Assembly (NCBI GenBank): GCA_030248225.1
Contig: JASANE010026736.1
Location: 80,058-144,057 of the forward strand
Source of the DNA: Trileptium ribeirensis
Lineage: Eukaryota; Nematoda; Enoplea; Enoplida; Thoracostomopsidae
DNA: 64,000 nucleotides
Direction: 5' to 3'
Below, one piece after another: positions 15,320 through 39,471 of the stretch. Both the position numbers and the translations under genes were made by a program. Every line of letters starts with the position of its first letter. Within the stretch, counting starts at the first letter, position 1. The notes beneath the pieces were generated by a model. The model saw nothing but the letters and a program-made list of their open reading frames with translations, did no database searches and had not been told where the DNA came from.

Positions 15320-15357
15320 TATAAAAGCAGATGGCCCGTTTTGGAATTGGGACCAGT
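15320..15357 (+). promoter_or_regulatory. LTR promoter: TATA box and initiator
   Basis: TATAAAAG at 15320-15327 is followed about 25 bp later by GGGACCAGTCGAG. Both blocks are kept in the 3' LTR (37503-37510 and about 37531-37543) while the DNA between them has diverged. The spacing fits a TATA plus initiator core promoter with a start near 15355. Confidence 0.65.
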
Positions 15358-15450
15358 CGAGTCTTGGCATTTCAAAAGTTGGTTGGTTGCGGCGGTTGTC
15401 GCCGATTTCGTTTGAATTTCTCCTTTTTGTTTCGTTTTGCTTTTCTCTTC

Positions 15451-15620
15451 GCCCGGGTGGGCTCTTCGGCTTGCAGACTTGCGGAAGAGACCCGCCCGGG
15501 CCTTTCGCTTCACTGATTTTCGAGCTTTCACTTAGAGCTAGGAACAGGGGCAGCCCTTGCGGGTGCTGGGGTGTCCATCGGATGCCTCGCGCTCCCGTAA
15601 GTGCTGTGCCCGCGCTTCGG
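15451..15620 (+). repeat. LTR structured module, copy A
   Basis: A strong hairpin (15451-15501, arms GCCCGGGTGGGCTCTTC and GGAAGAGACCCGCCCGGGC) is followed by an 80-bp block (15538-15620) of the form AGCCCTTGCGGGTGCTG to GCTCCCGTAAGTGCTG. It lies downstream of the presumed RNA start, so it would be in the 5' leader. GTAAGT at 15597-15602 matches a splice donor. Confidence 0.75.
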
Positions 15621-15911
15621 GGAAATTAGAGAAAACCTCGGCAAAATTGTGGTTAAAATTGACAATCAAGGAGAACATCCCGTGCTCGACTGGTTCCCCA
15701 CCTGCTGGGTCGTGGTTGTGTTGGACGCCCAGTGGGTGTATTATTTGCATGGTTTAGCAGAGTTACTTTCGCTTTTAAATTTGGGTTAGAAACCGTTTGC
15801 GAGTGGTGACGAGCAGTATCCAGAGCGGTCTAGGAATGTTGGGTGACGGTGACGCCCGCGCGGTAGTCGGAACAATACTTGGACATCAGAGTTTTGGAGA
15901 GTTGTTCGTGG

Positions 15912-16076
15912 CTCGGGTGGACTCCTCGACTGCGGACGCGTGGAGGAGTTCCGCCCGAGGCTTCTCCCGGATTTTTAAATGTTCTTGCGTAGGTTCAGGA
16001 ATAGGGGCAACCCTTGCGGGTGTTGTGGCGTCCGATGGATGCCTCGCGCTCCCGTAAGTGCTGCGCCCGTGCTCCT
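15912..16076 (+). repeat. LTR structured module, copy B
   Basis: Hairpin 15912-15959 has arms CTCGGGTGGACTCCTC and GAGGAGTTCCGCCCGAG. The inner stem is CTCC/GGAG where copy C has CTTC/GAAG, a paired change that keeps base pairing. The 80-bp block follows at 15993-16075 with GTAAGT at 16054-16059. Confidence 0.75.
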
Positions 16077-16293
16077 CCGTTGTGAGCTGAACAGATTGAA
16101 AGAAAATTTGGGTTGGCCCTAGAAGCGTTGGCGAATTTGACGTGAGCTACGCATAGATAATCTGAGGGCTCAGACGTAGACAACGATGTTCAGACGCTTA
16201 CTATTAGGCGGTTCGAAGTTTTTTACTGGCTTCAAGGCACGCATAGCAGTTGAAACGAATTTTATACACTGGAAATTTCTTAGTTACGCTCGT

Positions 16294-16460
16294 CTCGGGT
16301 GGACTCTTCGACCTGCAGACGCGTGGAAGAGGTCCACCCGGGTTTGTGGCAGAGTTTTCTGAGCATGTTGCTTAGGCCTAGGAACCGGAACAGCCCTTGC
16401 GGGTGCTGTGGTGTCCGGCGGATACCTTGCGCTCCCGTAAGTGCGATGTCCGCGCTTCTG
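16294..16460 (+). repeat. LTR structured module, copy C
   Basis: Hairpin 16294-16342 has arms CTCGGGTGGACTCTTC and GAAGAGGTCCACCCGGG and loop CTGCAGACGCGTG, then the 80-bp block at 16379-16457 with GTAAGT at 16437-16442. Confidence 0.75.
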
Positions 16461-17495
16461 CGATCTGCGCGAGCCATTTTAAAAGAAAATTTAGGCCGGC
16501 ACTAGCACGGTTAACTGAATTTTACATGAGCAGTGTGAAGGCAAATTAAGGCTCAGATCTAACTACCAAATTTTGGGCTGAGGGTCCCGCGTTTCTAAAC
16601 GAGCCAATGGGAGCTCACAAAACATCATTTCGCTATCCAAGAGGGGGGCTGCAAAGACTTAGGGAGTCAAATTTTTGTACTTTCGAGTTTCTCGAGCGTG
16701 TGCACACTGAGCCAGGTATCTTGTATGTGCCAGGTTTTGACGTATCGTAGTGTACATATTTGCCTTATGGTGTGCACATGATTGGGTGATGTCTTCGTTT
16801 TTGCTTTATGTTTTAATTATAGAAAAGGGAATACCAAATAGTAAACGTTTGACGTGTGGAATTTTGTAGGCGAATTCGTAGGTTTGTTTTAGCTAAGCGC
16901 GCGCCAGTTCAAGAAAATACATGAATCCCCATAGTCCAACGCTGTTTTGGCTTGAGTCCACCGTTCTTCCCCCACACGCCGCCCTCCAACAATACTGGCG
17001 ATTTCTGTGCCATTTTACCACCACCCTATCCCCGCTCATTACACACCAGTTTACCTTAGTTTTGACATAGACAACTTGTGGCCACACCCAAGTCAAATGC
17101 ATGGAGACCGGTGCGTTAAATTTAGTCTATCCCCAGTTAATTCCTCTCGTGCGCGCCGCCCCGCCCGACCTTCGTCAGTAACCAGTATATGGCATAGGAT
17201 TCGATAACCGGAGACGAGGGAAAGACGGGTCCGCCCCATTACCTGTGAGCAGGCTTAGGGGATGACCCTCCCTCAGGGGGGACCTCCATGCTACTAGACA
17301 CGTGGGCCAATATAGGGGCCAGGCCGAACACCCTGGTAAACCCGCCGAGCAGCCCGCTAAGCTAAGCGGTTCCTATCGGTCAGACTAGGGTCCGCCGGGG
17401 AATCGTGTAAGCCGGGGTTGTCCGGGCACCACGGTGAAACTTGAAAGTGGTGCAGCTGGGATCCCTTAGGGCCAGAACTGGTCCTAGCTAGTACA

Positions 17496-19207: not shown

Positions 19208-22122
19208 ATGTCATTGCCAGCGAGCGCGAATAGAACGCCAATAAGTAGCGCAGCGGGAACGACGAATATAGGAAGTGGCACTGCCACTACGGCTGGTAGT
19301 ACAAATGGACCAAGTCCTATCGCTTCGGGAGACCCTCTAGTTGCAATTCTGCAGGAGTTGACGCAACGAACGACGACGGCTTCCATCATTCAAGTACGGG
19401 ACATCCCACCTTTTTTAAGAGCCGATGGGCAAGACTTTGAAGCCTGGTTGGCTACATATGACAACCTGACCGACGCAAATGGGTGGACCCTGGACCAGAA
19501 ACTAATTTGTTTTCCAACCGTATTAAAAGGGGAGCCCTCAAAATATACGAAAGTTTCCCCGACTGTCAAAAGCAAACTTATGAAGCCCTTTGCTATAATA
19601 TGGGTTTCATGTATTCGTCATCGCAAAGCGACGAGGACGCTTTGATAACGCTCCGCATGCGAGTGCAAAGGGAACGTGAATCAGTTGCCCTGTTCGGACT
19701 TGACTTGCAGAACCTTGTGGACAAAGCGTTCCCGGAGGTCGAGGGTGAACAACGCGACGCCTTGTTACAGAAATTTCTGCGACAAGGACTACGACGAGAA
19801 TTAAAATCTGGAGTAATAGGGAAGACATGCCCGTCTTTTAAGCACATGATGGACAAGCTCAAATATAAAGAGGACGCTATTCTAGCTTCACAGAAAGAGG
19901 TAATAGGAATACCGGTTCCCAAAAGCAGCCGGTCCAAAACAGCAAACTGCATGTCACAAGGAGGCGAGAATACCCAACTGGAAGATCAAATCCGCGAAGC
20001 TTTAGATGAGAATAAACGCACTGCAGCCAGTAGCGACGCCACGATCGCTCGGCTTATTGACCTGCTAGATAAACGCACTGAACAGCACCAACTGAACGCG
20101 ATGATGCAGAATAGTGTGACCCCGGCAGCCGGCGCTAACGCTGTTCCAGCAGCACCCATAGGAAATCAGTGCTTTCGATGCGGTTTCGTAGGACATTTCG
20201 CACGGGAATGCACGTACTACCGAACCGACGTGTATGACCCACTCCTAAATGAATACACCCGCTTGTCAACACGCGCAGCCCCAGGCTACGTGCAGAATGC
20301 ATCCGCACCCATTAACGGTTATCCTAGCGCACCCTCGCAGTACAGCAACCGCCCCCGATATCGAGTAATTGAACATCGAGGAACAGGCCGATCCTCGCGA
20401 CGCGATAAATGGAATCATCAGCGAGGACCTGTAGGTTACGGGCAGCAAGGATATTACCGCCCTGAACCTGCTCCGAATACATACGGACACTATGGCCGAA
20501 CTGAATACTACAACCGATCGCGTGGCCGCGATACAAACGGACCTAACAATTGGCACAATGGCTATCAGGCCGCACCTAACGCGCGTTACACAGGCCCATC
20601 GCACTTGTCAGCTGAAGCAGCACCATTCCGCCCGCACACACCTAGCAACGGCTGGAACAACGCTAACCAAGTAGGGTCAGCCACTCGATCCAGGCCTTCA
20701 CAGGCACCTATGGGTCAAAATGAACAATCAGGTCGCCGCAACGCAGGCGTTATGTCAGTAACCCGCGCAGCTGACCCCGAACTCGCACATCGTCTAGATG
20801 TCATGCGACACGAAATGTCAACTTTAGAGGAACGCGCAGGAGCTGGTTTGAGTGCTCGGTCGACACAAATTAACGCAATGATCACTAGCGACAGCGCAAA
20901 ATACGCACACGAGGACCCAAATAGCGAAGTAGAAAACGAAGGCCAGTGCGAATTCGAACCCGAACCAACTCTATATCAACTGAATTTATTGCAAACGAAC
21001 GGAACACCAGCACGATTATTGCCGCAAGCGACCAGGTCGTTGGGCGACAATGGGGAGTATAACGCAATTGGATACGAACTAACCAGCGTAGTAGAAGTAG
21101 GGCGTAACAAGGAACAAATTAGATCTAAAACCGAACGGCGCTCGGTTTCACTGTCTCCGACCCCTGGCGCGCAGGGTGTGACTCGTGACCCTGTGAGTAA
21201 TGGTCGGCCGACCGATTTATATGTATATCCCAAAATGGAGTCAGCTCGAAGTGATGGAAACCGACATACCGAGAGAAGTGAGAGGGGAGGAGGAGTCGAT
21301 GAACCAAGGGAACCAAATGTACCTGATATGCCGAGTGAGAAATATGGGAGATGGCCGTTCGGACTTCGGGGGCCGATTAATAGGGCATCCGTGTCTAGCA
21401 ATGACCCAAACGCTGGCACGTGTAACCCATCTCAGGCGGCTGCATATCGGAGGAAACCTAATGGACTTATGGATGCGGAACCTAAGGAACCAATGGAGGA
21501 TGAAACTAATGGAATGGAACCTAGAGAGACGCCGTTCGGACTTCGGAGGCCGATTAATAGGGGTCGCGTGTCAGGCGATGGCTCTAACGCCGGCACGGCA
21601 CAACCTGGTGAACCCGCCAATTTTCACAGGCTTATTCAAAATTGTATGTGTGTAGCGGAACCAGAAGAACCTGATGAGGAATCAGTGAACTCAATGGAAC
21701 CTAATGGACTTGCGGATACCGAGAACCTAGTGGAACCTAACCTAGTAGAACCTAATGGATGGAATGGAATACCGAGTAACCTAGCAGAAGGGAACCGAGA
21801 ACCAAAGGAAGTAGATGAACTTAACCTAGTGGATGCATCCGATACTAAACTGGCTCCAACCAATTTAGGGCGGCCGTGTGAGGCCCCTGTAGCGTTTCAA
21901 CCGACCGGGGAAGACCGTAAAGGACACTGGTCAGGTGCGATGGAGACCTTCGGGAAACGGATCAGCTCGATTGTCCTAACTCCGTTCAAAATTCGAGAGC
22001 GTATGTGTACCCTAGAATCTTTAGAGGCCGGGGAAGAGGACACTGGCCAGGAGAAGGGAGGCGTTGGGAAGCGAGCCGCCCCGTTGGCCCGAGCTCCGTT
22101 CAAAATTGTAATTTATGTGTAG
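19208..22122 (+). pseudogene. gag: gag of element 1 (frameshifted)
   Basis: Gag forms the particle and binds element RNA. ATG at 19208 opens a low-complexity Ser/Thr/Gly N-terminus, then a retrotransposon-gag helical region with FEAWLATYDNL and QKLICFPTVLKG. The frame breaks once between about 19515 and 19560; the downstream frame continues with a Gag-type helical core (LRMRVQRERESVALFGLDLQ). One CCHC zinc knuckle is intact at 20170-20211 (C-FR-C-GFVG-H-FARE-C). A basic G/N/R/Y-rich tail follows, then a long acidic linker to the TAG at 22120. Element 2 encodes a homologous Gag without this particular break, so the shift is probably a mutation here. Confidence 0.85.
21340..22122 (+). repeat. 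Diverged internal repeats in the gag-X linker
   Basis: The block GTTCGGACTTCGGGGGCCGA with following NAGT-encoding sequence occurs at about 21357 and again at about 21535. A second pair, starting GGACACTGG and ending CGTTCAAAATT, occurs at about 21921 and 22039. The acidic linker seems to have grown by tandem duplication. Confidence 0.65.
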
Positions 22123-22124
22123 GA

Positions 22125-24104: not shown

Positions 24105-25917
24105 TTGTGGAGCCGAGGGGTTAGATTCGTGGGATTAGTAATTTTCCTGCTTATCGTTCAACAAATTGGTCAAACCCAGGCAATCGCCACGCCATTTTCG
24201 GACCAGGTAGCGCGCTTAGGAGCCATGGTCAACCAACAAGTGGGCACCTTAATCGAACCACAGGGTCTGGTAATAACAGCCTCGCGATCCACTTTCCTAC
24301 CGATCGTTTTGCCATTGTCTCTGGACGGGCTACAACCGAGCAGGCAAGCAACCGCTATGGAGTGGTGTGTCTACATCCCCAGGGGTAAACCATGCCGAGG
24401 AAACTGTTGGCCCAGCCCGAATTGTACTACCATGCCGGACTTACAGCGCAAAATTCAAGAGTTGGAGCGAGAACTAAGGAGCATTTATCAGGGTGTGCTG
24501 CATACAAGTTATATGGCTCTAATGCGCGAATATTGCGAAGCGAACGTTCATTTTTGTGAAGAGCCCAAGGCTCGGAAGAAAAGATTTCTTGCTGCCCTAG
24601 CCGGAGCTGCTGGCGTAGTTACAGGATTCTTAGGAGTAGGGGTAGCGTTCACAAATGCAGTGCACCTAAAGGACCTTAATAAACAGATGATAGCACTGTC
24701 TAAGGAAATGCGAAACACTTATAGTGTGGCTCAAGGCAACTCGCGAGCAATCTTGAAATTAACACGCGCTAATGAGAAACTCTACTCCTTCCTACATCAT
24801 GATATGCAGGAAGTGGTGGGCATGATAGAAAAAGGTTAGGTGCCAGAAACAACGCTACGTGACTGAGGTACATCGCGAATTTGTGAATCATATGTTTCGC
24901 ACTAGCCTGCGTTCTTCAGTTGACGCCGTCATGGAAGCCATGATGAGCGGGCAGCTATCACCAAAAGTGGTGGATGCCGCGACACTAAAGCGTCTATTCG
25001 AAAAGGATCCAAGAATAGGACAAACCATACTAATACGCGCGCCGGCGCTAGCCTACCAGTTTGGGCAAATTTACCCAGTGCACATTGACCTGGGCACGTT
25101 CAAATTTGCATTCTTCTTAAGGGTACCGCTAGTTACGTCGGACGACGTCCGGCCTTATTTTCGGATATACAACGTTCGTTGGAACGTACCAGAGCGTGGT
25201 GCGCACATGAGGCTACCGCTGCCAGAATATGCCACGCGAGTTGAACAGGCACGATATGAGGTGCTGAACTTGCACGCATGCAACACGCGACCTGGTATTG
25301 CTTTCTGCGAAGTTCACGCTTTGGCCACCGACCATTCTTCACGCTGTTTGGACTGGATCATCATGGGCGAAGACGCCCTCGATGACACGCGCCGCATATG
25401 CAGGAACAGCGCACTGGTCGGACCAATGGTCAACCATACCGACGTGTACACTACCGCTCAAGGAGTATTAATCCGAACCGCTGAGCCCAAGGCCGTGGTC
25501 TCCAAGCAAAAGCACCTCAGCCATGTAACTCGCGGGGACACCATTAGGATACCAGAAAATGGAGCGCTATGGCTGTCACACAGCAATTGCACCCAACTGG
25601 TGGTCGGACCACTAATGCTCGCCAGTACACTAGACGCTCAGGAGGTCATCGTTCACATCGGACCCAACATCACCATACATGACTCCCCAGATATTCCTCT
25701 CAGGCCTATCACCTGGAGCTCATTAGAACATGCCAAGGCTACCAACTTACAGGTCCAACGGATAGCTGATGAACAGTTGAAGAAGGTGATCGACTTTCCG
25801 TACATTACGACAACGGGAGTAGCCCCTTACCTTTGGATGCTTGTCGTGCTAGTCGTTGTGGGCATAGGTGCTATCATTTACATCAGGAAAAGGCAGGCAT
25901 GTGCCCTAAATGTATAA
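24105..25917 (+). pseudogene. env: env-like glycoprotein of element 1 (frameshifted)
   Basis: The layout is that of a class I-type fusion glycoprotein. A hydrophobic leader (FVGLVIFLLIVQQ, about 24132-24170) is followed by a Cys-containing surface part. A furin-type site ARKKR ends at 24584 and a Gly/Ala-rich hydrophobic fusion-peptide-like segment follows, then a heptad-rich helix. The C-terminal ectodomain has N-glycosylation motifs (NHT, NCT, NIT), a membrane anchor at about 25825-25885 and a short basic tail. One frameshift with a TAG at 24837 separates the fusion-peptide half from the rest. Its end overlaps the pol frame by at least 85 bases. It lies upstream of pol, not downstream. Confidence 0.8.
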
Positions 25918-26357
25918 GGGGACGCTTACAACGCTGGTGGCAACAACGACCATGTAGTCAAACAAACCCAAAGCGACTTGAACTGAACATCAAAACCGGG
26001 AACGAGTATGGTACCCCAGATGCGGTTCGGCCTACGGTCTCAGCCCCAGCCGCTTCCACGGAACACCTGGAATTGCGGACATTGAGCCCACGTCGATCGG
26101 CTCGACTAAATAACCCCAATGAGGAGGAGGACGTTGTTCTGGTGGAACCTACGGAACTATTTGCAGTATCCGAGCGTGCGCAACGTAGGGGACATCGCGC
26201 AGTATCTTACCACCGACAAGTCAATGCCATGCACTACATAGACGCACGGCTGCTCATCAACGCTTTTATCTACCGGACACCAGTCCTCACGTTGATCGAT
26301 ACAGGCGCGGACGTCTCTATCGTATCACAACATCTGGTAAGCAAGCTAGGTCTTTAG
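25833..26357 (+). CDS. pol: pol of element 1, protease segment
   Basis: This is the first part of a pol frame that overlaps the 3' end of env in the -1 frame. A basic and acidic N-terminal stretch is followed by an aspartic protease with the active-site motif LIDTGADVSIVS at about 26290-26325. A TAG at 26355 interrupts the frame just after the active site. Downstream sequence resumes in the same frame, and element 2 reads through the equivalent position, so this is a nonsense mutation. No start codon is obvious; expression may need frameshifting from env or a spliced message. Confidence 0.85.
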   Translation: MDACRASRCGHRCYHLHQEKAGMCPKCIRGRLQRWWQQRPCSQTNPKRLELNIKTGNEYGTPDAVRPTVSAPAASTEHLELRTLSPRRSARLNNPNEEEDVVLVEPTELFAVSERAQRRGHRAVSYHRQVNAMHYIDARLLINAFIYRTPVLTLIDTGADVSIVSQHLVSKLGL

Positions 26358-26405
26358 CCCCGCCCAGACAACTCGACGCGGATAGTATCGGCCACCAAAC
26401 AGGAA

Positions 26406-29132
26406 TTGGCATTGGACGGTAGCATAAGTGTACCCTTATCGATCGGACCTATTAAGGTGCAGACGGAATTTTTCGTTACCCAAACTGCTCCGTACCATTG
26501 CATCTTAGGAACAAATTTCTTGTCGCAACTGCCAAAATACATCATAAATCTTCGCGAGCGCTGTTTAGAAATTGGCATAGACGAGGAAGAAGCCAAAATA
26601 CCCTTCGCAGGCTTGGAGCGCTATGACCCACCCTTAATAGCAGTGATGTGCAGAAAACTTACCACCATCCAACCAAATACAGAAACGTTTATCAACGCTA
26701 TCCCCGAAATTGCTGACACAGGCGTAGGACCCGCTCTATTTGTCCCCGCTCCCGAAATGACGGATATCGCAATGGCACACGCATTGGTGCTCAGAAGTCA
26801 GCGGACCATACCAATTGCGGTAATCAATTTTGGTAACACACCTGTCACCATATACTCAGGACAAACTATTGGGCACATAGAGGTCATGAGCAACCCAACT
26901 ATACAATTCCTTAAGGACACAAATCAAAATTTGATACGATACGAGGAACATAAGGAGGCTAAACAGCTAAACCATATCACTACCCACCCTGAGAGGATTA
27001 TTGAACATATTGAGGCAGGCAAGCGCTCCATCGATCATGAACGGGCCCAAACAGTATTGAGTAAAATAGATTTTGATAGTACACTACTATCGCCTTTCGA
27101 ATTAAAACAACTGAAAACCGCAATTGCTGAAAATGCAGACGTATTCAGCACGCATGATTTCGACCTTGGACGATACACGGAACACCGACATCGCATAGAA
27201 ACCGGGGATGCAAAGCCAATCAAACAAGCACCATATAGGCTGGCGCATTCTTTACGCGAACCACTTAGGGAAGAACTAAATAGTATGTTAGACGCAGGCC
27301 TCATAGCCCCGTCGAGTTCACCTTGGGGATCTCCAATAGTTAACGTAACAAACAGTGATTGCTCTCTCCGACTGTGTGTCGACTTTCAGAAGGTCAACAC
27401 AGTAACAGAGCAAGACGCCTATCCACTGCCACGCATAGACGATATACTAGGGTGCCTCAGTAACACGAAACTAATGTCCAGTTTGGACCTAAATAAAGGA
27501 TTTTGGCAGTTAGAATTAGATCCTGAAACTAAAGATAAGACATCTTTCGTGACGGTGCACGGACAATACGAGTATAACGTCCTACCGTTCGGTCTAAATT
27601 CGTCCCCCGGAGCCTTTCAGCGTTGCATGTCAATGATTTTGAAGGGGCTTGAGTGGGAAAAATGTCTAATATACACAGATGACATACTAGTTTTCTCACC
27701 ATCATTCAAGGCCCATCTGGCAGACCTGATTCGGGTTTTCGATCGTTTCCGTAAGGCGAATTTAAAACTCAAACCCTCGAAGTGTCACTTCGGACGAGGC
27801 AGCCTCAAATATTTAGGACATATAATTAGTACCGAAGGTGTCAAACCAGACCCAGAAAAGGCAATAGCCATAGAAGAATTCAAACGTCTGGAAACGTTGA
27901 AACAGCTCCAAAGTTTCTTAGGGCTTGTAGGGTACTACCATAAATTCATTCAAAATTACTCGGATATCTGCGAACCGTTAAATGAACTAAAACGTAAGGA
28001 CACAGAATTCAAATGGACCCTTAGGCGCGAGGAAGCCTTCAAGAGATTAAAGCAGGCATTATTGGATGAACCGGTCTTGATTCACCCTGATTTCAAGCAG
28101 CCTTTTCTCCTGCAAACGGACGCTTCCGGATATGCTATGGCTACAGTGTTTTGCCAGAAATATAAGCAAGGAATAAAACCCATTGCATACGCTAGCAAGG
28201 CCCTCCTTGATTACCAACGCAGGTACCCCGCAATAGAAACTGAAGCTCTCGCTATTAGGTGGGCCGCACTACATTTTAAGCATTACCTTGTAGGGCACAA
28301 ATTTCACGTTGAGACCGACCACAAACCACTTAAAACCCTATTTGATAAGCCACCCAAAAATTTACGCTTATCTCAATGGCGAAGTGAGCTATTACTTGAG
28401 TTTGGGGGATTCGAGATATTGTATAGGCCAGGTAAGGAAAATGGCAACGCAGATGCCCTATCACGCGATCCTAGGTACGACCCGTCTGTAGTTGAGGAGT
28501 TAGGAGATACGTACGAAGTCCTTATGATGGGCCGAGGACGACCCTCCGGACCTCGCCCGCCAACAACCTGCGCAGCATGGGATCAATCGCACCTGCCGTA
28601 TCCCGTACGCACTGTTACACCGCTAGCAACCGGCGCGCCAACTCCTATAACAGGGAGCCCAATAGCTCCTCCAGGCCAACCCAATCCTGAAGCAATCCCA
28701 TCGCAATTAGTCGCCGACACGCAAGTAACTACAGTACCCCCAGCAACGCTGACCCAGCAGGCAGCTACGCTAAGTGCGATCCCGATTAGGATGGATCCGG
28801 GAGAAACCCCAGTGGTGTCGGTCCGTACAACCACCATCTCGGGTTCTGAAGGCAGACCTCAGGCTCGAGGACCCAAAAGACCGTTTCGCACCGAATCAGA
28901 AACAATGGGCCTAAGAGCAACCACGCTACCGACTGAACAGGAGTTTGATAGGCTCATGAAACTAATGATGCACTATGAAACCGAAATACTACCAACCGTC
29001 CGAATTGAGGACGCACAGGACACTCATGAAAACATATATTTGCCATTCTTTTCGGATCTCCCAGATTTTAATTTAGTGCGGCTCTTACCATATATCCAAC
29101 GCAATGACCCTGAATTGGGTCCAATTTGGTGA
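26406..29132 (+). CDS. pol: pol of element 1, reverse transcriptase and RNase H
   Basis: An uninterrupted frame of about 900 codons, in the same frame as the protease. It begins with the protease C-terminus (CILGTNFL). The RT domain has LDAGLIAPSSSPWGSP, FQKVNTV, SSLDLNKGFWQLEL, LPFGLNSSPGAFQRCM and the catalytic LIYTDDILVF at about 27664-27694. A Ty3-type RNase H follows (LLQTDASGYA, AIETEALAI, HVETDHKPL) and ends near NADALSRDP. A proline/threonine-rich linker then leads toward integrase. TGA at 29130 ends it where element 2 keeps reading; TAA at 29184 is a second break. Confidence 0.92.
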   Translation: MALDGSISVPLSIGPIKVQTEFFVTQTAPYHCILGTNFLSQLPKYIINLRERCLEIGIDEEEAKIPFAGLERYDPPLIAVMCRKLTTIQPNTETFINAIPEIADTGVGPALFVPAPEMTDIAMAHALVLRSQRTIPIAVINFGNTPVTIYSGQTIGHIEVMSNPTIQFLKDTNQNLIRYEEHKEAKQLNHITTHPERIIEHIEAGKRSIDHERAQTVLSKIDFDSTLLSPFELKQLKTAIAENADVFSTHDFDLGRYTEHRHRIETGDAKPIKQAPYRLAHSLREPLREELNSMLDAGLIAPSSSPWGSPIVNVTNSDCSLRLCVDFQKVNTVTEQDAYPLPRIDDILGCLSNTKLMSSLDLNKGFWQLELDPETKDKTSFVTVHGQYEYNVLPFGLNSSPGAFQRCMSMILKGLEWEKCLIYTDDILVFSPSFKAHLADLIRVFDRFRKANLKLKPSKCHFGRGSLKYLGHIISTEGVKPDPEKAIAIEEFKRLETLKQLQSFLGLVGYYHKFIQNYSDICEPLNELKRKDTEFKWTLRREEAFKRLKQALLDEPVLIHPDFKQPFLLQTDASGYAMATVFCQKYKQGIKPIAYASKALLDYQRRYPAIETEALAIRWAALHFKHYLVGHKFHVETDHKPLKTLFDKPPKNLRLSQWRSELLLEFGGFEILYRPGKENGNADALSRDPRYDPSVVEELGDTYEVLMMGRGRPSGPRPPTTCAAWDQSHLPYPVRTVTPLATGAPTPITGSPIAPPGQPNPEAIPSQLVADTQVTTVPPATLTQQAATLSAIPIRMDPGETPVVSVRTTTISGSEGRPQARGPKRPFRTESETMGLRATTLPTEQEFDRLMKLMMHYETEILPTVRIEDAQDTHENIYLPFFSDLPDFNLVRLLPYIQRNDPELGPIW

Positions 29133-29186
29133 TATCTCTATAACAAAACACGGCCCAATGCCGAATTAGGCGCGCTAAGAATATAA

Positions 29187-29882
29187 ATGCGGGCACACTA
29201 TTTTGAACTAGCCGCCGATACCAAAATATTGTACATGCATCCATTGCAACTAGGGGACATAAATTGCAAGCTATGTGTCCCTATCACACTCGTACAGCAA
29301 ATACTCAAACATGAACACAATACATTATGTGGAGGACACCCTGGCCGTGACCGGCTTATAGCTAAATTAAAACAGTTTTACTATTGGAAGGGTATGTCCG
29401 AACACGTACAGCAATGGATCAGGCGGTACACTCTATGCCTGTCCGCGAAGGACCCAATCTCGCGGATAATCACCGGATCGGGTAGGGTTCCGTTGGCAAA
29501 TCAACCAATGTATCGTGTCTTTGTGGACATACTCGACATCCAAGTCCGGTCACAGGCAGGCAATCGTTATGTTATTGCATTTATAGATCAGTTTACAAAA
29601 TTTGCAATAGCAGTGCCAATAAGGCACCAGGATGCTCATACAGCTGCCCATATATTCCTATATGAGGTAGTCAATAGGTACGGAGCTCCCAGGGAGCTCT
29701 ATTCTGATAGAGGGGGTGCTTTTACTGCACACATGTTCGAAGAGCTGTGTCAGGAAATGCACATATTTCGGCACATGAGTTTAGCTTATCACCCTCAGGC
29801 AAATGGTGAAATTGAAAGATTCAATAGGACCCTACTATATTTATTACGAGTGAGTGTACCACAGGATGATCACCACTCATAG
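29187..29882 (+). CDS. pol: pol of element 1, integrase zinc and catalytic domains
   Basis: The frame is the same as the RT segment. An N-terminal integrase zinc region is visible (HEHNTLCGGHPGRDRLIAKL), but the expected CxxC reads YTLC, so one metal ligand is missing; element 2 has CVLC. The catalytic triad is intact: D in FVDILDIQV, D in LYSDRGGAF and E in NGEIERFNRTL. A TAG at 29880 breaks the frame soon after the catalytic domain. Integrase inserts the cDNA into host DNA. Confidence 0.88.
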   Translation: MRAHYFELAADTKILYMHPLQLGDINCKLCVPITLVQQILKHEHNTLCGGHPGRDRLIAKLKQFYYWKGMSEHVQQWIRRYTLCLSAKDPISRIITGSGRVPLANQPMYRVFVDILDIQVRSQAGNRYVIAFIDQFTKFAIAVPIRHQDAHTAAHIFLYEVVNRYGAPRELYSDRGGAFTAHMFEELCQEMHIFRHMSLAYHPQANGEIERFNRTLLYLLRVSVPQDDHHS

Positions 29883-29906
29883 GATGTATCCCTACCATTC
29901 TGCATC

Positions 29907-32165
29907 ATGGCCTACAACTCTTCTGTACACACAGCAACGAAATACCCACCATTCCTGCTAATGCATGGTATTTACCCTAGGTTACCTGGAGAATATGACA
30001 CGCATAGTGCAGCCACCGGATACACAGGAGCACATTCCTATAGGGCCAACGCGCAGCGCTGGATGGCTTCTATTAGGAAGCGTGCATACCAATCAATGAA
30101 AGCCGCCCAAGAATTAAACCGGCTAAGATATGATAGACGGGCTCGCGAACCGCGCTATCACACAGGAGAATTAGTTTGGTTTTATAGGCACGATACCACC
30201 CCAGGAATAGCTAGAAAGCTCACGCCTCCATACGAAATATTAGGGATCACCCCGCCTTGCATGCGCGTATGGATGCATTCTAATCCAGAAGGCATGGCCC
30301 ATGTCGTACATATTAATATAACCAAGCCGTGTTTTAGGGCATTAGATCCGGTGCCCAGCGTGGGAGATTGGTTAGGTCAGGTACACGCTTTCGTACTAGA
30401 ACGGGGTTTGACTGAAGCAACCCAACGTATTATCGCTGATAGGGATTTCGTCACTGAGATAGAGCCGGTAGACGAAGTAGCAGTACGCATAGTAAGAACA
30501 GCAGTCAGTGATAGTTCTGATACGGAAAGCATCGAAATGGGTGACCCCAACTACCCTAATCTATACCGTCGAACCTATGCTGAGATTGAGGCCGAGCAAG
30601 CAGCAATGGAACATATCGAGTACAGGACGGACGCTCACGAACCACAAAATCCAAGGACGGTCAGGAATCGGATTCCCCTGACTGATCCGGATAGGGAAAT
30701 TGAACCTACCTGGCCACCAATAGCACAAGAGCAGGTTACTAGTCAGGAGGCCTTTTCATACATACCAGAACCTGGTAGCCGAGACACGCAGGTAGAGTAC
30801 GGACAACATACAGTGCCAGTGACCACGATGGAAAGAATAGTGGCTACCAGTGAGGAAGTCCCGTTTGGCGTACCGACAGTAGGTGTTGGAATACTCGAGG
30901 GACAACATTTCTACCCAGCAGATATCACGCTATCCACCACGCCACGCGGAGCTTCAGGCGGAATCGTCGTACCGGGACCATACACCTCAGGGGATCTACG
31001 CTACGCAATCATGCTCGCCGCGCAGGATCACCCATTATTTCAATCACGACCGGCCGAACATATCATGGCTTCGCGACTACGAGTACCAATGGAAATGTCC
31101 ACTCAAACCATAGGAGACTATACAACAATGCGCCCTTATAGTGCTCCACCAGCAGCCGCTGACAGGCCTATGTCTCCTCATCAGTGGGTCTTTCGCGAGG
31201 CACCCATGACTCAGCCACCTCTAGGGTCACCAATGTCCAGTTACTTGTCGGAGACCTCCGGAGAGGGCACGACAGTAGACGTAAGAGCAGCTGAAGCAGA
31301 CGACGAATTGACTAGCCAAACCTCACAGGAACCATCTTCGGCCGAGCGACATGGCCAGGCAGGACTAGGAACATCAAGCAGTGATTCTAGGACGCCTACC
31401 ACCCAACCGGGAGCCTCTGACTCATTTAGTGAATTCACACTTGCAAGTTCAAGCAGCGAAACACCAGCGCCTCGAAGAGGAACTGGACGGACAGTAACGC
31501 TAAGTACCCCTCCTCGCACCCGAGCACCGCCGAGCGAGCAAAGGAGCACGCGAGCACCGCCAGAAGAGCGAGGGAAGGCCCTTGTCGGACGGACCACCCA
31601 ACGGAAACAAATTGTATCGGCCCGAGGCGGTTCAACTATTCAGTTTACAAGCACCGAACAACCGGGACCATCCACAGTGACCATTACCGAGTTGGTACGC
31701 ACCACTGCCACTACCACCTCCTCAGGAATAATACGACTCAGTACCACCCATGCAACGGCCCCAACCAGGCACCTTTTGCATCGACAGGCTAGAGACCGGG
31801 TCTTTAGGCCATATGGCGCAGCATCGGACGAGGAAGTAGGGGAGGCCTTACGCAGGCCTAGACGCGTGACTTTCCAGGAACCGGAGACAACCACTGCCAA
31901 CACTGCGGGAACATCAACTAGGCTAGCTTCTGCCACACACGCACAATCCACTAGTGTCACCACCTCAATGACGAGCGCGCCAATACTGACCCCAAGACCA
32001 CTTTTGATTGGAGAACGCTCGCCAGGCAGAACTTTACCATCAACCACGTTCCCACGCTACCCCTCTAGCCAAGAACTGTACCCCGCCGCTTGGCGACAGC
32101 GTGTACCTCGACCACCACCCCATGAGGAATCTGAGTCCGACGAGTCGGACCCGCAAGTGGACTAA
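29907..32165 (+). CDS. pol: pol of element 1, integrase C-terminus and long disordered tail
   Basis: It continues the pol frame after the TAG at 29880. The first 140 or so residues carry the end of the catalytic core (YNSSVHTATKYPPFLLMHG) and a GPY/F-like domain (GELVWFYRHDTTPGIARKLT). Then come some 600 residues of acidic, then Ser/Thr/Pro/Arg-rich low-complexity sequence to TAA at 32163. No chromodomain or other fold is evident. The tail is unusually long for a Ty3/gypsy integrase. The matching part of element 2 is lost by truncation. Confidence 0.82.
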   Translation: MAYNSSVHTATKYPPFLLMHGIYPRLPGEYDTHSAATGYTGAHSYRANAQRWMASIRKRAYQSMKAAQELNRLRYDRRAREPRYHTGELVWFYRHDTTPGIARKLTPPYEILGITPPCMRVWMHSNPEGMAHVVHINITKPCFRALDPVPSVGDWLGQVHAFVLERGLTEATQRIIADRDFVTEIEPVDEVAVRIVRTAVSDSSDTESIEMGDPNYPNLYRRTYAEIEAEQAAMEHIEYRTDAHEPQNPRTVRNRIPLTDPDREIEPTWPPIAQEQVTSQEAFSYIPEPGSRDTQVEYGQHTVPVTTMERIVATSEEVPFGVPTVGVGILEGQHFYPADITLSTTPRGASGGIVVPGPYTSGDLRYAIMLAAQDHPLFQSRPAEHIMASRLRVPMEMSTQTIGDYTTMRPYSAPPAAADRPMSPHQWVFREAPMTQPPLGSPMSSYLSETSGEGTTVDVRAAEADDELTSQTSQEPSSAERHGQAGLGTSSSDSRTPTTQPGASDSFSEFTLASSSSETPAPRRGTGRTVTLSTPPRTRAPPSEQRSTRAPPEERGKALVGRTTQRKQIVSARGGSTIQFTSTEQPGPSTVTITELVRTTATTTSSGIIRLSTTHATAPTRHLLHRQARDRVFRPYGAASDEEVGEALRRPRRVTFQEPETTTANTAGTSTRLASATHAQSTSVTTSMTSAPILTPRPLLIGERSPGRTLPSTTFPRYPSSQELYPAAWRQRVPRPPPHEESESDESDPQVD

Positions 32166-32297
32166 ACTACTCGACACAACGGCACGTACCCCGAGGTAGA
32201 ACCCAAATTCCCCGCAAAACCCAGAACAAGGGTGAAAGTTAAGGCAGACCTAATTTTCATCCATACTATGTAAATTTACCAGTGCTTCCTTCATTTT

Positions 32298-32302
32298 AGA
32301 TG
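32298..32302 (+). promoter_or_regulatory. Predicted 3' splice site abutting ATG of NADAR ORF 1
   Basis: A pyrimidine-rich tract (GTGCTTCCTTCATTTTAG) ends in AG at 32298-32299 and the next three bases are ATG (32300-32302). The same arrangement occurs before ORF 2. This predicts a spliced message with a leader joined directly to the start codon. Confidence 0.55.
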
Positions 32303-33549
32303 CGTCGCAGCTACAGCCACAACGATCTCCGTGCGCCCCGCCTTCCACAGTACTGCATACGCCAGCGGTGTGCGATGGACATCGCTATCCGACCGTTCCC
32401 CGAAGCCACATGAGCAGCTCACGCTTCTGGGATGCGGTCGAACTCAAGGGCTCAAATCGGACCACGCTGGCAAACGAACATTATCTCCATGGAGGCTTTA
32501 AGCATAATGGCCGCCAGCTCGGCAGCGCCACCGAGCATTTCTACATAACGATCTTGGATTTGTTGGGCTTCGTCACGGTGATCGCCCACATGCTGGACCA
32601 GCGAATGTCGCCGACGGAGGTCAAACTACGCAGCGTAGCCCTCCTCCGCACGCTGCCAGCAAACACCCGACGGTGGCTCCGGTCGTACCAGCTGCACGTC
32701 ATGCGCCCAATCCTGCTGGCGAAATTCCAGGAGCTCGACTACTGGGAGGAGCTGGACGATTCGGGCCACAAACCGCTCCTCAACGACACCTTCGACAACT
32801 TCTGGGGCACAGGTGTCCACCGGAGCGAGTGTGGTGCAGATCAACCGGCGCACCACAACGTGCTGGGCCATCTACTTTGCGACATTCGGTCCTTCCACCG
32901 AGACCGTTTCGTGCGGTGGCCGAGAACCATTATCGTCGGCGACGAACGCGCCCTGCCCTTGGTGGACGTGGCCGACGACCACAACCGGATAACATTCGTA
33001 CGGCCTGGGCTTAACATGATTTCTTCGTTGATCCACTGGGCGAACGCATTCCTGACGCACCAGACGGATTGCGTTATCATCATCGGCGGCTACCGGGACG
33101 TTTGGCATTTGCCCAACAAGGCCTTCTCGCCCGGCGCCTATCTCAAGCGAATTAAGCGCCACCTAATGGTGCTCGAGCAACGTCTCCGGGCAGACTCGGC
33201 CGTTGTTATCACCGGACCGGCGCCACACTGGGACGACTTCAGGGTCGACAGTACAGCGTGGTTCGACGAACTGACCGAACGGAGAACGCGGATGGTGGAC
33301 GGGCATCAGGCGCTCATGAGCGTCATCATGCCAGGCTGGCCCGCGGCGCTGAGAGGAATCGAGGCCTGGGATGCAATCGGCCCATTTAATCGGGGCGAAG
33401 AACGCCAACGATGGGCCGAGCCAGTGGTCTCGCCGCCGTTCTGGCCACAGCTGCGCGACTGGACTGAAGTACTAATACGGCGCACAGACATGTTTTGGCG
33501 TATGGGCGAGGCTCACCTATATGACCAAGCTGAGCCCTGGCAAGAGTAA
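32300..33549 (+). pseudogene. NADAR + SGNH-like protein 1, accessory ORF of element 1
   Basis: From the in-frame ATG at 32410 the protein has 379 residues. Residues ~5-162 match the NADAR (YbiA-like) pattern: EHFY at 42-45, MRPILLAKF at 98-106, D129 in DTFDNFWGTG, and N150-VLGHLLCDIR. NADAR proteins act on ADP-ribosyl N-glycosidic bonds; some reverse guanine ADP-ribosylation. Residues ~170-360 resemble an SGNH hydrolase (IIVGDERALP, then VIIIGGYRD), but the Ser of GDS and the Asn of GxND are absent. The ATG at 32300 lies in another frame that reads to a TGA near 32410, so a frameshift near 32400 probably broke the N-terminus; the 32410 start may still yield most of the domain. It is a paralogue of the next ORF. 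Confidence 0.75.
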
Positions 33550-33739
33550 GGCCGTACTAATCCAAACGAAAAAAAGGGGAGAAGTAGCCATTTTGAAGAG
33601 TAAGGGAGACGCACAGAGTAGCAGCTAGGAGGCAACGCGTAGGTAGAGCAGAGTAGAAAGAACTAACCGGCGAGCGATTAGCGAAATAGAGCGACCCTAC
33701 GCAACGACAACCCGAATATTTATTTGAGTTTATTCTTGC

Positions 33740-33744
33740 AGATG
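33740..33744 (+). promoter_or_regulatory. Predicted 3' splice site abutting ATG of NADAR ORF 2
   Basis: TTTGAGTTTATTCTTGCAG ends at 33741 and ATG follows at 33742-33744, exactly as at ORF 1. The approximately 190-bp spacer between the ORFs is otherwise non-coding, so this acceptor seems to serve ORF 2. Confidence 0.6.
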
Positions 33745-34986
33745 GCCAGCACCTCGCAACCGCGACGCAGCGACGAAGCCGAGCAGACTCGGAGGCGATC
33801 CAGCGGACGCGTATCGGTGAGTGGGCCATTCGCCCCACCAGAATCGACGTGGTTCCAGCTTCCGGCGATCCCGACCTACCGTGTGGATTTAACCAAGCCA
33901 TACGTGACATTTTTATCCCACGGTACCGAATGGCCGGAATTGTCAAATATGCACGAGGCACCAACCCCATTCGCGCACGACGGTAACACCCTGTCGACCG
34001 TCGAGAAACACTACCAGGTACAGGTGCTCTCGCTGCTGGAACTAACCGACGCCGTCCGGGAACTGCTACTCATGACCGGCACTCCGCTGCAGCTCAAGAC
34101 ACGAGCGCGAGAGCTAAAGAATGAGCTCATTGACGGTGTTACCCAAGCCCGTCTCAAGCCGCTCCTCGATCATATCATGCGGCCGATTCTGCTTAGCAAA
34201 TTCGCCATACCAGAATATGCGCGGATATTGCGACTCACAGAGGATCAACAATTATTGGAGGCCACCACGGACACTTTCTGGGGCGTCGGGCGCACCAATC
34301 AACAGCTGCAGCAGCATGAAGCCCCGACGCGCTGCCACAACGTCATGGGCAGATTACTCGAGGAAGTACGGGATTACCGTGCTACCGGTCACGCTCGTTG
34401 GCCCAAGACAGTCATAGTGGGTGACGCCCTGGCGTTGCCAATATTAGAAATGGCCACCGAAAACAAGTGGATTGTCAACGGGTGGCCAGGATCCACAATG
34501 GTACGCTTGCTGCAGCTGGCAAATGCCATCTTAACCCCGCAGACCAGCTGCATCGTCATTCTCGGCGGGTTCCAATACATCTACCGCAAGGCACCAATGG
34601 AGCAGCTCCACGCGTCCTTGCCGAACGCCGCCTTCCGTAAATTCAAGCGACACCTGGGTGTACTTTCTCGCCGAGTCGCACCTACCACTGCCATCATTAT
34701 AGCGCCACCGGCACCCCGATGGGCTGCCACCAACCAGGACGCATTGTCATGGACGGCTGAACTCAAGCAGCTCATGGCTAACCACCGACGGCAGCACGAC
34801 ACCTTCCACAACGTTTACATGCCTTCCTGGCCGATTGCGTTACACAGTGCAGACGCGTGGGAACGGGACGACCCGCATATGGAATGGCAGGAAAAGCCGC
34901 ATTTTGACGAGCCAATGGTGTCGCATTATTGTCGGCGGAACTTGCATGAGTGGGTAAGCCGTCTAGTTAGGGACGCCGAGCTATGA
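33742..34986 (+). CDS. NADAR + SGNH-like protein 2, intact accessory ORF of element 1
   Basis: An intact frame of 414 residues from an ATG that abuts a splice acceptor. After a disordered Ser/Arg-rich N-terminus (1-45), residues ~52-213 form a NADAR domain: PYVTFLS and LSNMHEAPTPF, then STVEKHYQVQ (E88, Q92), MRPILLSKF (146-154), EATTDTFWGVG (173-183, D177, W180-G181) and N200-VMGRLLEEVR. These are the conserved positions of YbiA/NADAR proteins, predicted or known to process ADP-ribose conjugates. Residues ~220-400 resemble an SGNH hydrolase (VIVGDALALP, NGWPGSTMV, IVILGGFQY), but the catalytic Ser and the Asn of GxND are replaced, so esterase activity is doubtful. The ORF has survived while gag, env and pol are broken. 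Possible roles are counteracting host ADP-ribosylation of DNA/RNA, or NAD-linked metabolism; both are inference. Confidence 0.8.
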   Translation: MASTSQPRRSDEAEQTRRRSSGRVSVSGPFAPPESTWFQLPAIPTYRVDLTKPYVTFLSHGTEWPELSNMHEAPTPFAHDGNTLSTVEKHYQVQVLSLLELTDAVRELLLMTGTPLQLKTRARELKNELIDGVTQARLKPLLDHIMRPILLSKFAIPEYARILRLTEDQQLLEATTDTFWGVGRTNQQLQQHEAPTRCHNVMGRLLEEVRDYRATGHARWPKTVIVGDALALPILEMATENKWIVNGWPGSTMVRLLQLANAILTPQTSCIVILGGFQYIYRKAPMEQLHASLPNAAFRKFKRHLGVLSRRVAPTTAIIIAPPAPRWAATNQDALSWTAELKQLMANHRRQHDTFHNVYMPSWPIALHSADAWERDDPHMEWQEKPHFDEPMVSHYCRRNLHEWVSRLVRDAEL

Positions 34987-35992: not shown

Positions 35993-38900
35993 TGTAACAG
36001 CCCCAATCTCATGAAAACGATAGAACGTTAAAAGTGCACTAAAATTATCGGGAATGAAGGGAACGGACGGCCGGACACCGGTGGAGTGTGACCTCTGTAT
36101 GAATTTATTACGTAAATGTGCAGTATTGTATTAATTTTGAAATAAACTTTGTATTTTATTTCCATTGCGTTTATAAGGTCACACTCCACCGCCCTAAGGT
36201 GCCCGGGGTGATTTTGGCACCGAAAACGGAAAACAAGTATCACGATTAGGGGTAGCCGGTCGATCCTCTTGAAAATGATTGATGGAATGTCTTGTGCATA
36301 AACTGTTTTCTATATATATATCTTATTGTATTTGGTGCGTAGAACGGGTGTGCGTTCGGAGAGGCCGGGGACCAACGGATGATTCCGGGATTTTTGGTGT
36401 TACACGAAAACTGGTCGCCCTGGGCCGATCCCAGCGCACACGCCGAATGATCATTATCTCACGACATATGCTGTGTATTGGTACTCGCTACATATATGGT
36501 GTATCTATATATTATATTTGGTCAAGGAATACTCGGACGAGCCCTAGGAAGGTCGTAGGTGATCGAAATCCTTGACCTAAGAGAGCCGAAACAGAGTACT
36601 TCAGGATATAAAATTTTCCAAGGCATTATTTTAGGGTATAACGATAATAGTTCAATTTTTGGGTTTTCTACAAACTCTAGGGGAACCAGGGTGACTAAAC
36701 CATCTTAAGAACCTCCCAGGGGTGTCAAATTGTCACGGCGGGTCTAAAAATTCGGATCCCCTAAATACTTACGGATTCCTAAACAGGCGTTTAAGCCTCC
36801 AATTTTCTAAGCCTAAAAGGGCACCCAAAATAATCAAAACTCCCTGATTTTTGAAGCCTGGGACACTTATCGGGTCCCACCCTAACCGTTTAGTTGAAAA
36901 CCGGGGCCGCCCACTCCCTCGAGTCCGCCCAGGATCCCCTAAACTTAAATGGGACTCTAAAATTCTCGTCTTCGCTCGCCTATATCGGCCTCTAACGGGC
37001 CTCTCATGGGAGATACATTATATCTTAAATTCTCATCAGTAGCCGATCTGCCAGGGCATGATTCTGGTCCTGCCGCCGACCGCCTACACTTTTTAGATCC
37101 TGAGATATCGGCAAATACGCGAAGTATCCCTATGAGAAAACAGCACTCTGAGCGCTGTTATATTTCTGCTTTAAAATTTCCTCGCACCGACCAGGGCGAG
37201 GTTTAGTTGTTTACAAGGCTGACTTGGCACGTTTCGGCCACTGTCCGCTGTGAGTTGCTGCCGCGTACCAGCTCATCGCTGTTTGCTGCACCTAGGAGAT
37301 CTACAGCTTACTGTTGTCTGCTCTACGAGGGGGTTTGCTTTAATTAGTCTTCATATTGCTGCTATGTATACTTGGTTGTTGCTTAAAATTGGGAGTTATT
37401 TTAAAATTACGTCGTATGTATATGGTTGGCGCCTCGGTTTTAAATCTGCTCTGTTATTAGAGTTGTCGCTTCTGAGACCAGTCCAAAAGGAGAAATTTCG
37501 AGTATAAAAGAAGATGGTACCCTTTTAAAAGGGGACCAGTCGAGCGATTTAAAACTTAAAGTTTGACGCTTTTGTCGGCGGTTGTCGCCGTAGTTTTTCC
37601 TCTCTTCTGTTTTCGTTTCCCTTGTGTTTTTAATCTGTTTCGTGCCCAAGTGGACTGTTCGACCTGCAGACGCGTGGAAGAGGTCCGCCCGGGGTTTTTC
37701 ACTGCAAGATTTTCGAGTTGTCGCTGAGCCTAGGACTAGGGACAGTACTTGCGGGTGCTGTGGCGTCCGGCGGATGCCTTGCGCTGTCGTAAGTGCTGTG
37801 CCCGCGCGGTGGAGAGGGGGACTGAGTTTTGGAAAAAATTTGGGACAAGATAGCGACAAAATAGTAAAAGGAAATGTCCACCCGTGCTCGACTGGTTCCC
37901 CACCCACTGGGTAGTGCCGATTGAGGATGCCTAGTGGGTGCCTCGCTTGCCGGTATCAAAATGTGTTGTAAATTTTAGTCTTGGAATTCATTTATCGGTG
38001 AGCACGTTTGTCATTCGATGCGTTTCATCAAATTTCACGGGTATTGATGCACGTGGCATTCGGAACAAATTTTGGTACACCGAAACCCCTGGGAAGTTTC
38101 GTTGTCTCTGGCGGAATCTTCGACTGCGGACGCGTGGAAGAGGCCCGCCCGAGGCTTCTCCCAGAGTTTTAAAATTTTCTCGCCTAGGCATAGAAAAAGG
38201 GCAGCCCTTACGGGTGTTGGGGTGTCCGTTGGATGCCTCGCGCTCCCGTGAGCGCTGCGCCCGCGCTTCTACTATCGAATAGGACAAAGGGGAAAACTTA
38301 AGGATAGGAACAGTAATGGAATTTTACATGATCAGTATGAGGATAAAGCGAAGGTTAAGGTCCTAATAACAAACTTTGGGTTGAGGGTTCCGCGTTTCTA
38401 AAAGAGTCCAAGTGGAGCTCACAGGATACAATTTCGTCATCCCCATTAGAATTGTCAACTAGTGAACTCGTTACTAATTCTCAAAATTTTGGGTCGAGGG
38501 ATTTAGTGGTCGTAAAACTTCATGGTTAGCGATTAACCTTTCGGGTCGTGGGTTCCGTGTTTCTAAAGGGGCTCTATCGGAGCTCGGGGATCGCTTTTCC
38601 GTCACCGAAAATTTGTAAGCTGACGGCCAATTCACACCGCGTTTCAAGTTCTACGAGAACGTGTGATGCGGGCTCTAGGTGGAGCCCGAGAGTTTGTTTT
38701 TGAGTGATCCCGATTGGGAAAATTTTGACGTGCTAAGTAAATAAAACAGAAAACAAGCAAATAGCTGGAGTGTGCAATTGTTCGCGAAATAAGCGAAATA
38801 GATCTAATATGAGTTACGCGAATCTCTAGGTAGGTGAATTAAACTCAATCAGGCGGCTCGCATCTACAGTTTCCTTCCGCGTGTTTCCAACTCCGTTCGT

Positions 38901-39471
38901 TGCAGGTGTCTTAGGTTACTGCCCCTCCCTCCGCCTACCATCCAAGACTCTGGTCCGATTTCAAACCACGCCTCGACCCCGGCCATAGGTCGGCTAAGCA
39001 ACTTATTACTTCCTAACAGGCGGAGCCATTCTGGCCCTGCCCCAGTGTAGCCATGATAGCACACACCAAATCCTACCTGCTAGGAGCCCCGGAGTTTTGG
39101 GGAAGTCACTCGACCGTTTATACACTCCTCGGAGCACGGACCCTATCGTTTGCGGTGTTTTACTCCTGGTCTTGGTTCTGCACCCAATCGCAGAAAACGA
39201 GGGAATGACGGGTCAGCCCTATTACCTGTGAGCAGGCTTAGGGGATGACCCTCCCTCAGGGGGACCTCCATACCTCTAGACACGTGGGCCAATATAGGGG
39301 CCAGGCCGAACACCCTGGTAAACCCGCCGAGCAGCCCACTAAGCTAAGCGGTTCCCATCGGTCAGACTAGGGTCCGCCGGGGAATCGTGTAAGCCGGGGT
39401 TGTCCGGGCACCACAGTGAAAATCGAGGGTGGTGCAGCTGGGATCCCTTAGCCAGAACTGGTCCTAGTACA
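35993..39471 (+). repeat. 3' LTR of element 1
   Basis: Homologous to 13803-17495. TG at 35993 and CA at 39470-39471. It has the TATA/initiator pair, two copies of the structured module (hairpins at 37644-37693 and about 38104-38152; 80-bp blocks at about 37732-37812 and 38186-38270) and an extra internal duplication around 38380-38590 (GGGTTCCGCGTTTCTAAA and GGGTTCCGTGTTTCTAAA). AATAAA at 38740-38745 is a candidate poly(A) signal. Confidence 0.87.

What the first reader, a model, noticed from the sequence alone, without database searches (positions are those of the whole stretch)
32300..34986. NADAR-domain proteins encoded by an LTR retroelement
Two ORFs between pol and the 3' LTR of element 1 show the NADAR pattern (EHFY or EKHYQ, M-R-P-I-L-L-x-K-F, D-x-F-W-G-x-G, N-x-x-G-x-L-L-x-x-x-R). 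NADAR (YbiA-like) enzymes cleave ADP-ribose-type N-glycosidic bonds, and some reverse guanine ADP-ribosylation of nucleic acid as antitoxins. Carried by a gypsy-type element with env, such a protein could counter a host ADP-ribosylation defence acting on element RNA or cDNA. The motif match is seen in the sequence, the family activity is established knowledge, and the anti-defence role is inference.
Basis: partly seen in the sequence, partly recalled or inferred. Interest (0 to 1): 0.95.

Follow-up and report, generated by a model that had tools for sequence, protein, structure and literature searches.

The report
NADAR gene pair in a retrovirus-like element
A retrovirus-like mobile element carries two related accessory genes of the NADAR family (enzymes that in bacteria can remove ADP-ribose from guanine), kept intact by selection and probably made from spliced messages, although a residue needed for efficient catalysis by a studied member is gone from both.

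The parts
13803..17487 (+). 5' LTR (TGTAACA ... TACA), about 3.7 kb
   Evidence: Alignment to the 3' LTR: 73% identity over the first 1.3 kb, 94% over the last 274 bases, 68-71% in pieces between
19208..22122 (+). gag region, two overlapping ORFs (19208-19645, 19483-22122) with a CCHC zinc knuckle
   Evidence: zf-CCHC E 3.2e-4
24105..25917 (+). env-like region in two ORFs: hydrophobic N-terminus, RKKR|F cleavage and fusion-peptide-like stretch, C-terminal membrane segment; lies between gag and protease
   Evidence: read by eye from the translations; no convincing Pfam or PDB sequence match
25833..26357 (+). protease start (LIDTGADVS)
   Evidence: weak gag-asp_proteas match E 0.0033, below cut-off
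26406..29132 (+). reverse transcriptase and RNase H
   Evidence: RVT_1 E 4.6e-29, RT_RNaseH E 4.3e-30
29187..32165 (+). integrase (29187-29882) and long pol tail ORF (29907-32165) without Pfam match
   Evidence: Integrase_H2C2 E 7.1e-16, rve E 9.1e-15
32283..32299 (+). splice-acceptor-like tract ending in TTTTAG directly before the ATG of NADAR-A
   Evidence: CATT[CT][CT]AG|ATGCG in 29 of 29 open copies
32300..33549 (+). NADAR-A gene: NADAR domain about 32560-32892, C-terminal half (SGNH-like by homology to B) about 32905-33549; early frame disruption in this copy
33725..33741 (+). splice-acceptor-like tract ending in TTGCAG directly before the ATG of NADAR-B
   Evidence: 39 of 39 open copies; last 13 nt 220/260 identical between subtypes against 1901/3614 in the rest of the A-B spacer, 20 pairs
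33742..34986 (+). NADAR-B gene: NADAR domain about 33928-34374, SGNH-like C-terminal half about 34399-34737
34003..34005 (+). NADAR-B Glu94 (counted from 33724), equivalent of Glu43 of P. nicotianae NADAR
   Evidence: E in 39 of 39 copies; GAG 25, GAA 14
34024..34026 (+). NADAR-B Val101, at the position of Lys50 of known NADARs
   Evidence: V 37, L 1, A 1 of 39; K in 98% of the canonical NADARs of a 60-sequence set
34258..34260 (+). NADAR-B Glu179, equivalent of Glu125 (YbiA-family acidic residue)
   Evidence: E in 39 of 39 copies
35993..39467 (+). 3' LTR, about 3.5 kb

Best explanation
The two ORFs are a duplicated pair of accessory genes of a retrovirus-like LTR element (pol in the gypsy order, env-like gene). 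Each makes a two-domain protein: a divergent NADAR domain joined to a domain that looks like an SGNH hydrolase without its catalytic serine and asparagine. Shown: NADAR family and fold, duplication, conservation, exchange between elements. Inferred: both are translated from spliced messages whose acceptor sits directly before each ATG, while unspliced RNA makes the gag, env and pol products. Inferred, most likely mechanism: NADAR-B binds ADP-ribose or a related nucleotide on nucleic acid and, with its two conserved glutamates, acts as a weak or differently specific N-glycosidase; NADAR-A is a degenerate, probably inactive partner; the SGNH-like halves serve binding or pairing. The pair would protect the element's RNA or cDNA, or its host cell, from ADP-ribose-type modification.
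For: NADAR profile and fold of B. A and B are full-length paralogues and one clade with support 1.0. dN/dS between subtypes: NADAR-B domain 0.044, whole B 0.075, whole A 0.137; RT 0.024-0.043 in the three comparisons. Glu94, Glu179, Asp183, Trp186 in 39 of 39 B copies, with synonymous codon changes at the first three. Acceptor|ATG at both genes; of three such sites with 9 or more pyrimidines of 14 in 17400-36000, two are these. Element RT found in 18 of 20 pieces fetched about 3.5-6 kb upstream of NADAR copies. Other NADARs of the genome lie beside a packaging-ATPase-like ORF (5 of 7 loci read; Pox_A32 match in the 2 scanned), so an unrelated kind of mobile element in the same genome probably carries the family too.
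Against: The catalytic lysine is absent in both, and A lacks the second acidic residue, so hydrolysis is doubtful. A Trp and a Gly that are invariant in the canonical set are also missing. In A the NADAR part is not the most constrained part between subtypes (0.163 against 0.114-0.129 for the C-terminal parts). No transcript shows the splicing, and no donor was established (one search lists candidates only). No target and no host ADP-ribosyltransferase was found or tested. dN/dS was measured on open copies only, which leans low. No relative outside this genome was found. By step: NADAR family about 0.95, spliced accessory genes about 0.75, action on ADP-ribose-type modification about 0.3 to 0.5.
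Confidence: 0.5

Rival explanations
1. Non-enzymatic accessory pair: the NADAR and SGNH-like domains are dead scaffolds that bind the element's RNA or lipids, for example for nuclear export of unspliced RNA, as CERV does for Cer1 of C. elegans, or for membrane targeting.
For: Lost Lys in A and B, lost acidic residue in A, lost Ser/Asn in both SGNH-like halves. [quoted passage not shown] The ZfL2-1 ORF1 esterase binds phospholipids (PMC3905857 abstract).
Against: Both glutamates that contact the distal ribose in NADAR, plus Asp and Trp of the pyrophosphate site, are invariant in 39 of 39 B copies, and the NADAR domain is the most constrained part of B, which a mere scaffold does not obviously need.
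Confidence: 0.35
2. Metabolic or nucleotide N-glycosidase: the protein acts on a small metabolite (riboflavin intermediates are the proposed substrate of some bacterial and plant NADARs) rather than on nucleic acid.
For: NADARs with that proposed role exist (PMC11125620 introduction); loss of the phosphate-coordinating Lys would fit a substrate without the diphosphate.
Against: No clear reason for an LTR element to keep two such genes in tandem; the pyrophosphate-contacting Trp and Asp are kept.
Confidence: 0.08
3. Passenger genes captured from the host, not needed by the element.
For: Captured genes of several enzyme types occur in LTR elements (bdelloid ORF3s, PMC5408684 results, part 1).
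Against: 100 scored copies of B and 105 of A, two subtypes, dN/dS 0.04-0.14, acceptor|ATG in all open copies examined.
Confidence: 0.04

Closest known systems
Ectocarpus Gypsy elements with a YbiA-family NADAR domain (PMC12477816; passages read)
   Same: NADAR carried by Ty3/gypsy-type LTR retrotransposons; function unknown
   Different: [quoted passage not shown] here two separate ORFs after pol, each joined to an SGNH-like domain and preceded by an acceptor|ATG, in an element with an env-like gene
Tx1 LINE ORF1 NADAR of Crassostrea gigas (same paper and call)
   Same: NADAR in a retroelement ORF
   Different: Non-LTR element; NADAR is in the ORF1 protein
Bdelloid rotifer Vesta/Juno LTR elements with GDSL-esterase ORF3 (PMC5408684; abstract and part 1 of the results)
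   Same: Accessory ORF after pol with an SGNH/GDSL enzyme family
   Different: Invariant catalytic residues intact there, lost here; the word NADAR does not occur in that paper (one search counts)
Cer1 / CERV of C. elegans (PMC10309623; passages)
   Same: Accessory ORF between pol and 3' LTR used in a spliced mRNA, TTTCAG/TTGCAG acceptor
   Different: CERV is not described as a NADAR and shares sequence with gag
DarT1-NADAR antitoxins and YbiA (PMC11543638 section 12 and passages)
   Same: NADAR fold, both acidic active-site residues in B
   Different: Catalytic Lys absent; no toxin partner seen; C-terminal SGNH-like domain

Membership tests
NADAR (PF08719) | Profile match above the curated cut-off | tested here: met
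   B 49.8 bits against cut-off 35.1. A 29 bits, not met on its own; A is a full-length paralogue of B
NADAR (PF08719) | YbiA-like fold | tested here: met
   [not shown]
Catalytically competent NADAR | Glu43 equivalent (P. nicotianae numbering) | tested here: inconclusive
   B: E94 in 39 of 39. A: Glu56 in 28 of 29, one residue off in the ungapped alignment, Thr55 in the column
Catalytically competent NADAR | Lys50 equivalent | tested here: not met
   B: V 37, L 1, A 1 of 39; A: I 17, V 11, M 1 of 29; Lys in 98% of the canonical set of 60
YbiA subfamily | Glu in the last strand (Glu125 equivalent) | tested here: met
   B E179 39 of 39; not met in A (Asn 17, Cys 11, Ser 1 of 29)
SGNH hydrolase | Fold | tested here: inconclusive
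   [not shown]
SGNH hydrolase | Catalytic Ser and Asn | tested here: not met
   GDS reads GDA in B (A 38, T 1 of 39) and GDE in A (29 of 29); GxND reads GGFQ / GGYR. The motif positions are placed by eye from recalled family knowledge
DarT-NADAR toxin-antitoxin | Adjacent ADP-ribosyltransferase toxin | tested here: inconclusive
   None among the element ORFs scanned with Pfam; not every small ORF was scanned
Ty3/gypsy LTR element | LTRs and PR-RT-RH-IN order | tested here: met
   clade not tested by a tree

The most novel reading that the evidence does not exclude
The pair is a retroviral counter-defence module: a two-subunit NADAR that undoes or masks ADP-ribosylation of element RNA or cDNA, implying that this host or its relatives use nucleic-acid ADP-ribosylation against mobile elements. 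Polinton-like elements in the same genome would have recruited NADARs independently against the same defence.
Probability: 0.2. Interest if true: 0.88.

Novelty: new variant of a known kind. Interest (0 to 1): 0.62.

Why it matters
If the NADAR pair acts on ADP-ribosylated nucleic acid, it would hint at an ADP-ribose arms race between eukaryotic hosts and retroelements, and a second, unrelated kind of carrier in the same genome makes that testable. Even if inactive, it is a clear case of a retroelement keeping, by strong selection, a duplicated two-domain accessory pair with its own splice signals, and exchanging it between lineages.

Tried and rejected
Protein searches of 5.8 billion sequences with B and with the A/B alignment found nothing at the thresholds used; the A/B alignment found no relative in viral contigs. 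B and the A/B profile found no NADAR by sequence in the PDB. A single-sequence structure prediction was useless (pLDDT 34). No tRNA and no Rfam match in the window. The host was not identified (one paper search by assembly size, no use; passages of PMC8556966, no use). The tree does not place A/B near any sampled NADAR; they sit on a long branch, and the idea that they descend from the genome's other NADARs was dropped on it. RT and B distances are not fully unrelated (Mantel r 0.176, p 0.046, n 14), so exchange is not complete, and the fall in identity towards gene A is gradual over about 1 kb. Whether element 2 of the window also carries NADAR genes could not be tested (contig ends; no more letters allowed). 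Whether element-1 copies have one gag-env-pol frame was not tested (search did not complete). Searches behind the statement that NADAR in retroelements is known to me only from Ectocarpus and oyster: (open-licence papers only; many hits for 'nadar' appear to be an author name).

Full report
What is there. ORF B gives PF08719 (NADAR) at E 5.9e-13, 49.8 bits, above the cut-off of 35.1; ORF A gives E 1.5e-6, 29 bits, below it. A and B match each other over nearly their whole length (31% identity, E 1e-60), so A belongs to the family through B. The 14 copies of A and B that were scanned all match NADAR at E <= 1.

Copies. The same genome (G000, 687 Mb in 20229 contigs; organism not identified) holds 100 scored places for B (of 2662 candidates; 68 of the 100 rows have no stop, my count) and 106 matches for A (105 scored of 2314 candidates); both lists are capped and ranked by score. 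From 50 loci (L009-L038, L044-L063) I took copies with the whole reading frame open: 29 for A, 39 for B, the window copy included; the rest were dropped. Element RT is found in 18 of 20 pieces fetched about 3.5-6 kb upstream of NADAR copies (L079 was short, L083 had none), so the genes belong to the element.

Selection. Copies fall into two subtypes by the NADAR genes (18 and 11 for A; 27 and 12 for B). Nei-Gojobori dN/dS between subtypes is 0.137 for A, 0.075 for B, and 0.044 for B's NADAR part at dS 1.09; within subtypes 0.106 and 0.170 for A, 0.064 and 0.126 for B. In A the NADAR part is not the most constrained part between subtypes (0.163 against 0.129 and 0.114 for the C-terminal parts). 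RT in 14 copies (13 of the 18 with a full frame, plus the window) gives 0.043, 0.035 and 0.024. Using open copies only leans the values low, but they are those of working genes, and B's NADAR part is about as constrained as RT.

Exchange. Copies C7184 and C12976 differ in RT by dS 0.090 but in B by 1.002 and in A by 1.414; C7184 and C2346 differ in RT by 0.538 but in B and in A by 0.082 each. In 150-base steps, identity of C7184 to C12976 is 88-99% in the RT piece, 79-97% in the pol-tail piece (falling over its last 1 kb, with steps at 81%, 81% and 79%), then 62-81% in gene A, 50% in the A-B spacer and mostly 72-89% in gene B (the stretch C7184:3800-4700 was not compared). RT and B distances are nearly unrelated over 14 copies (Mantel r 0.176, p 0.046). 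The 3' part with the NADAR pair has therefore recombined between element lineages.

Splice signals. Directly before the ATG of B stands TTCTTGCAG, matching [CT][CT]TTG[CT]AG|ATGG in 39 of 39 open copies; before the ATG of A stands CATT[CT][CT]AG|ATGCG in 29 of 29, in frame with the NADAR part in 28 of 29 (the exception is the window copy). The spacer between A and B is otherwise poorly conserved between subtypes (1901 of 3614 aligned positions identical over 20 pairs), but the last 13 bases before B's ATG are kept (220 of 260). In 17400-36000 only three sites combine a tract of 9 or more pyrimidines of 14 with YAG|ATG: 20798, 32300 and 33742. I infer spliced messages, by cis- or trans-splicing; no donor was established.

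Active site. In known NADARs, Glu43, Lys50 and Glu125 (P. nicotianae numbers; Glu88, Lys95, Asp171 in E. coli C7 NADAR) matter for guanine-ADP-ribose hydrolysis; the Lys is essential for efficient hydrolysis, though Arg can stand in for it in vitro (PMC11543638 section 12). B has Glu94 and Glu179 (39 of 39) and the pyrophosphate-site Asp183 and Trp186 (39 of 39), but Val/Leu/Ala at the Lys. A has Thr55 in the Glu column with Glu56 next to it, Ile/Val/Met at the Lys and Asn/Cys/Ser at the second Glu. I read B as a binder or altered enzyme and A as a degenerate partner.

Other NADARs in the genome. The best PF08719 matches (124-141 bits, 150 scored of 2317 candidates) are of the ordinary kind. 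Seven of the first eight loci were read (L001-L004, L006-L008). In five (L001-L004, L008) an ATPase-like ORF lies upstream; of these, L001 (at the cut-off) and L004 were scanned and match Pox_A32, and in L004 a TBP-like ORF (E 1.1e-32) follows. L006 and L007 begin too near the NADAR to show it. I call these clusters Polinton-like from the ATPase and recalled gene content; capsid and polymerase genes were not looked for. The tree puts these NADARs apart from A/B.

Against what is known. NADAR in retrotransposons has been reported for Ectocarpus Gypsy and oyster Tx1 LINEs (PMC12477816, passages); GDSL ORFs in rotifer LTR elements (PMC5408684, abstract and part of the results) and an SGNH esterase in LINE ORF1 (PMC3905857, abstract); a spliced accessory product using an ORF after pol in Cer1 (PMC10309623, passages). 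The union of these in a tandem pair within an element with an env-like gene did not come up in my searches. Function remains inference.

Noticed in passing
window 19208-32165 and 51587-62387: In both elements the env-like region (furin-like site, fusion-peptide-like stretch) lies between gag and protease instead of after pol. Copies of element 2 have single open frames of up to 4749 codons around the integrase (16 of 150 rows at 4700 or more, my count), suggesting one gag-env-pol polyprotein.
   Followed up: partly
L001-L004, L006-L008 (G000): Ordinary NADARs of the genome lie near a packaging-ATPase-like ORF in 5 of 7 loci read (Pox_A32 match in the 2 scanned); L004 also has a TATA-binding-protein-like ORF at 2050-2589.
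   Followed up: partly
window 13803-17487 and 35993-39467: The two LTRs are 73% identical over the first 1.3 kb but 94% over the last 274 bases, odd for one insertion: old insertion with conversion, recombinant, or assembly fault.
   Followed up: no
G000: 150 scored matches to the element-2 integrase at 92-100% identity, many with the same score, out of 4197 candidates: looks like a recent burst.
   Followed up: no
BFVD matches of the NADAR-B model: NADAR-like folds also turn up in nidoviruses (yellow head, gill-associated), giant viruses and phages.
   Followed up: no
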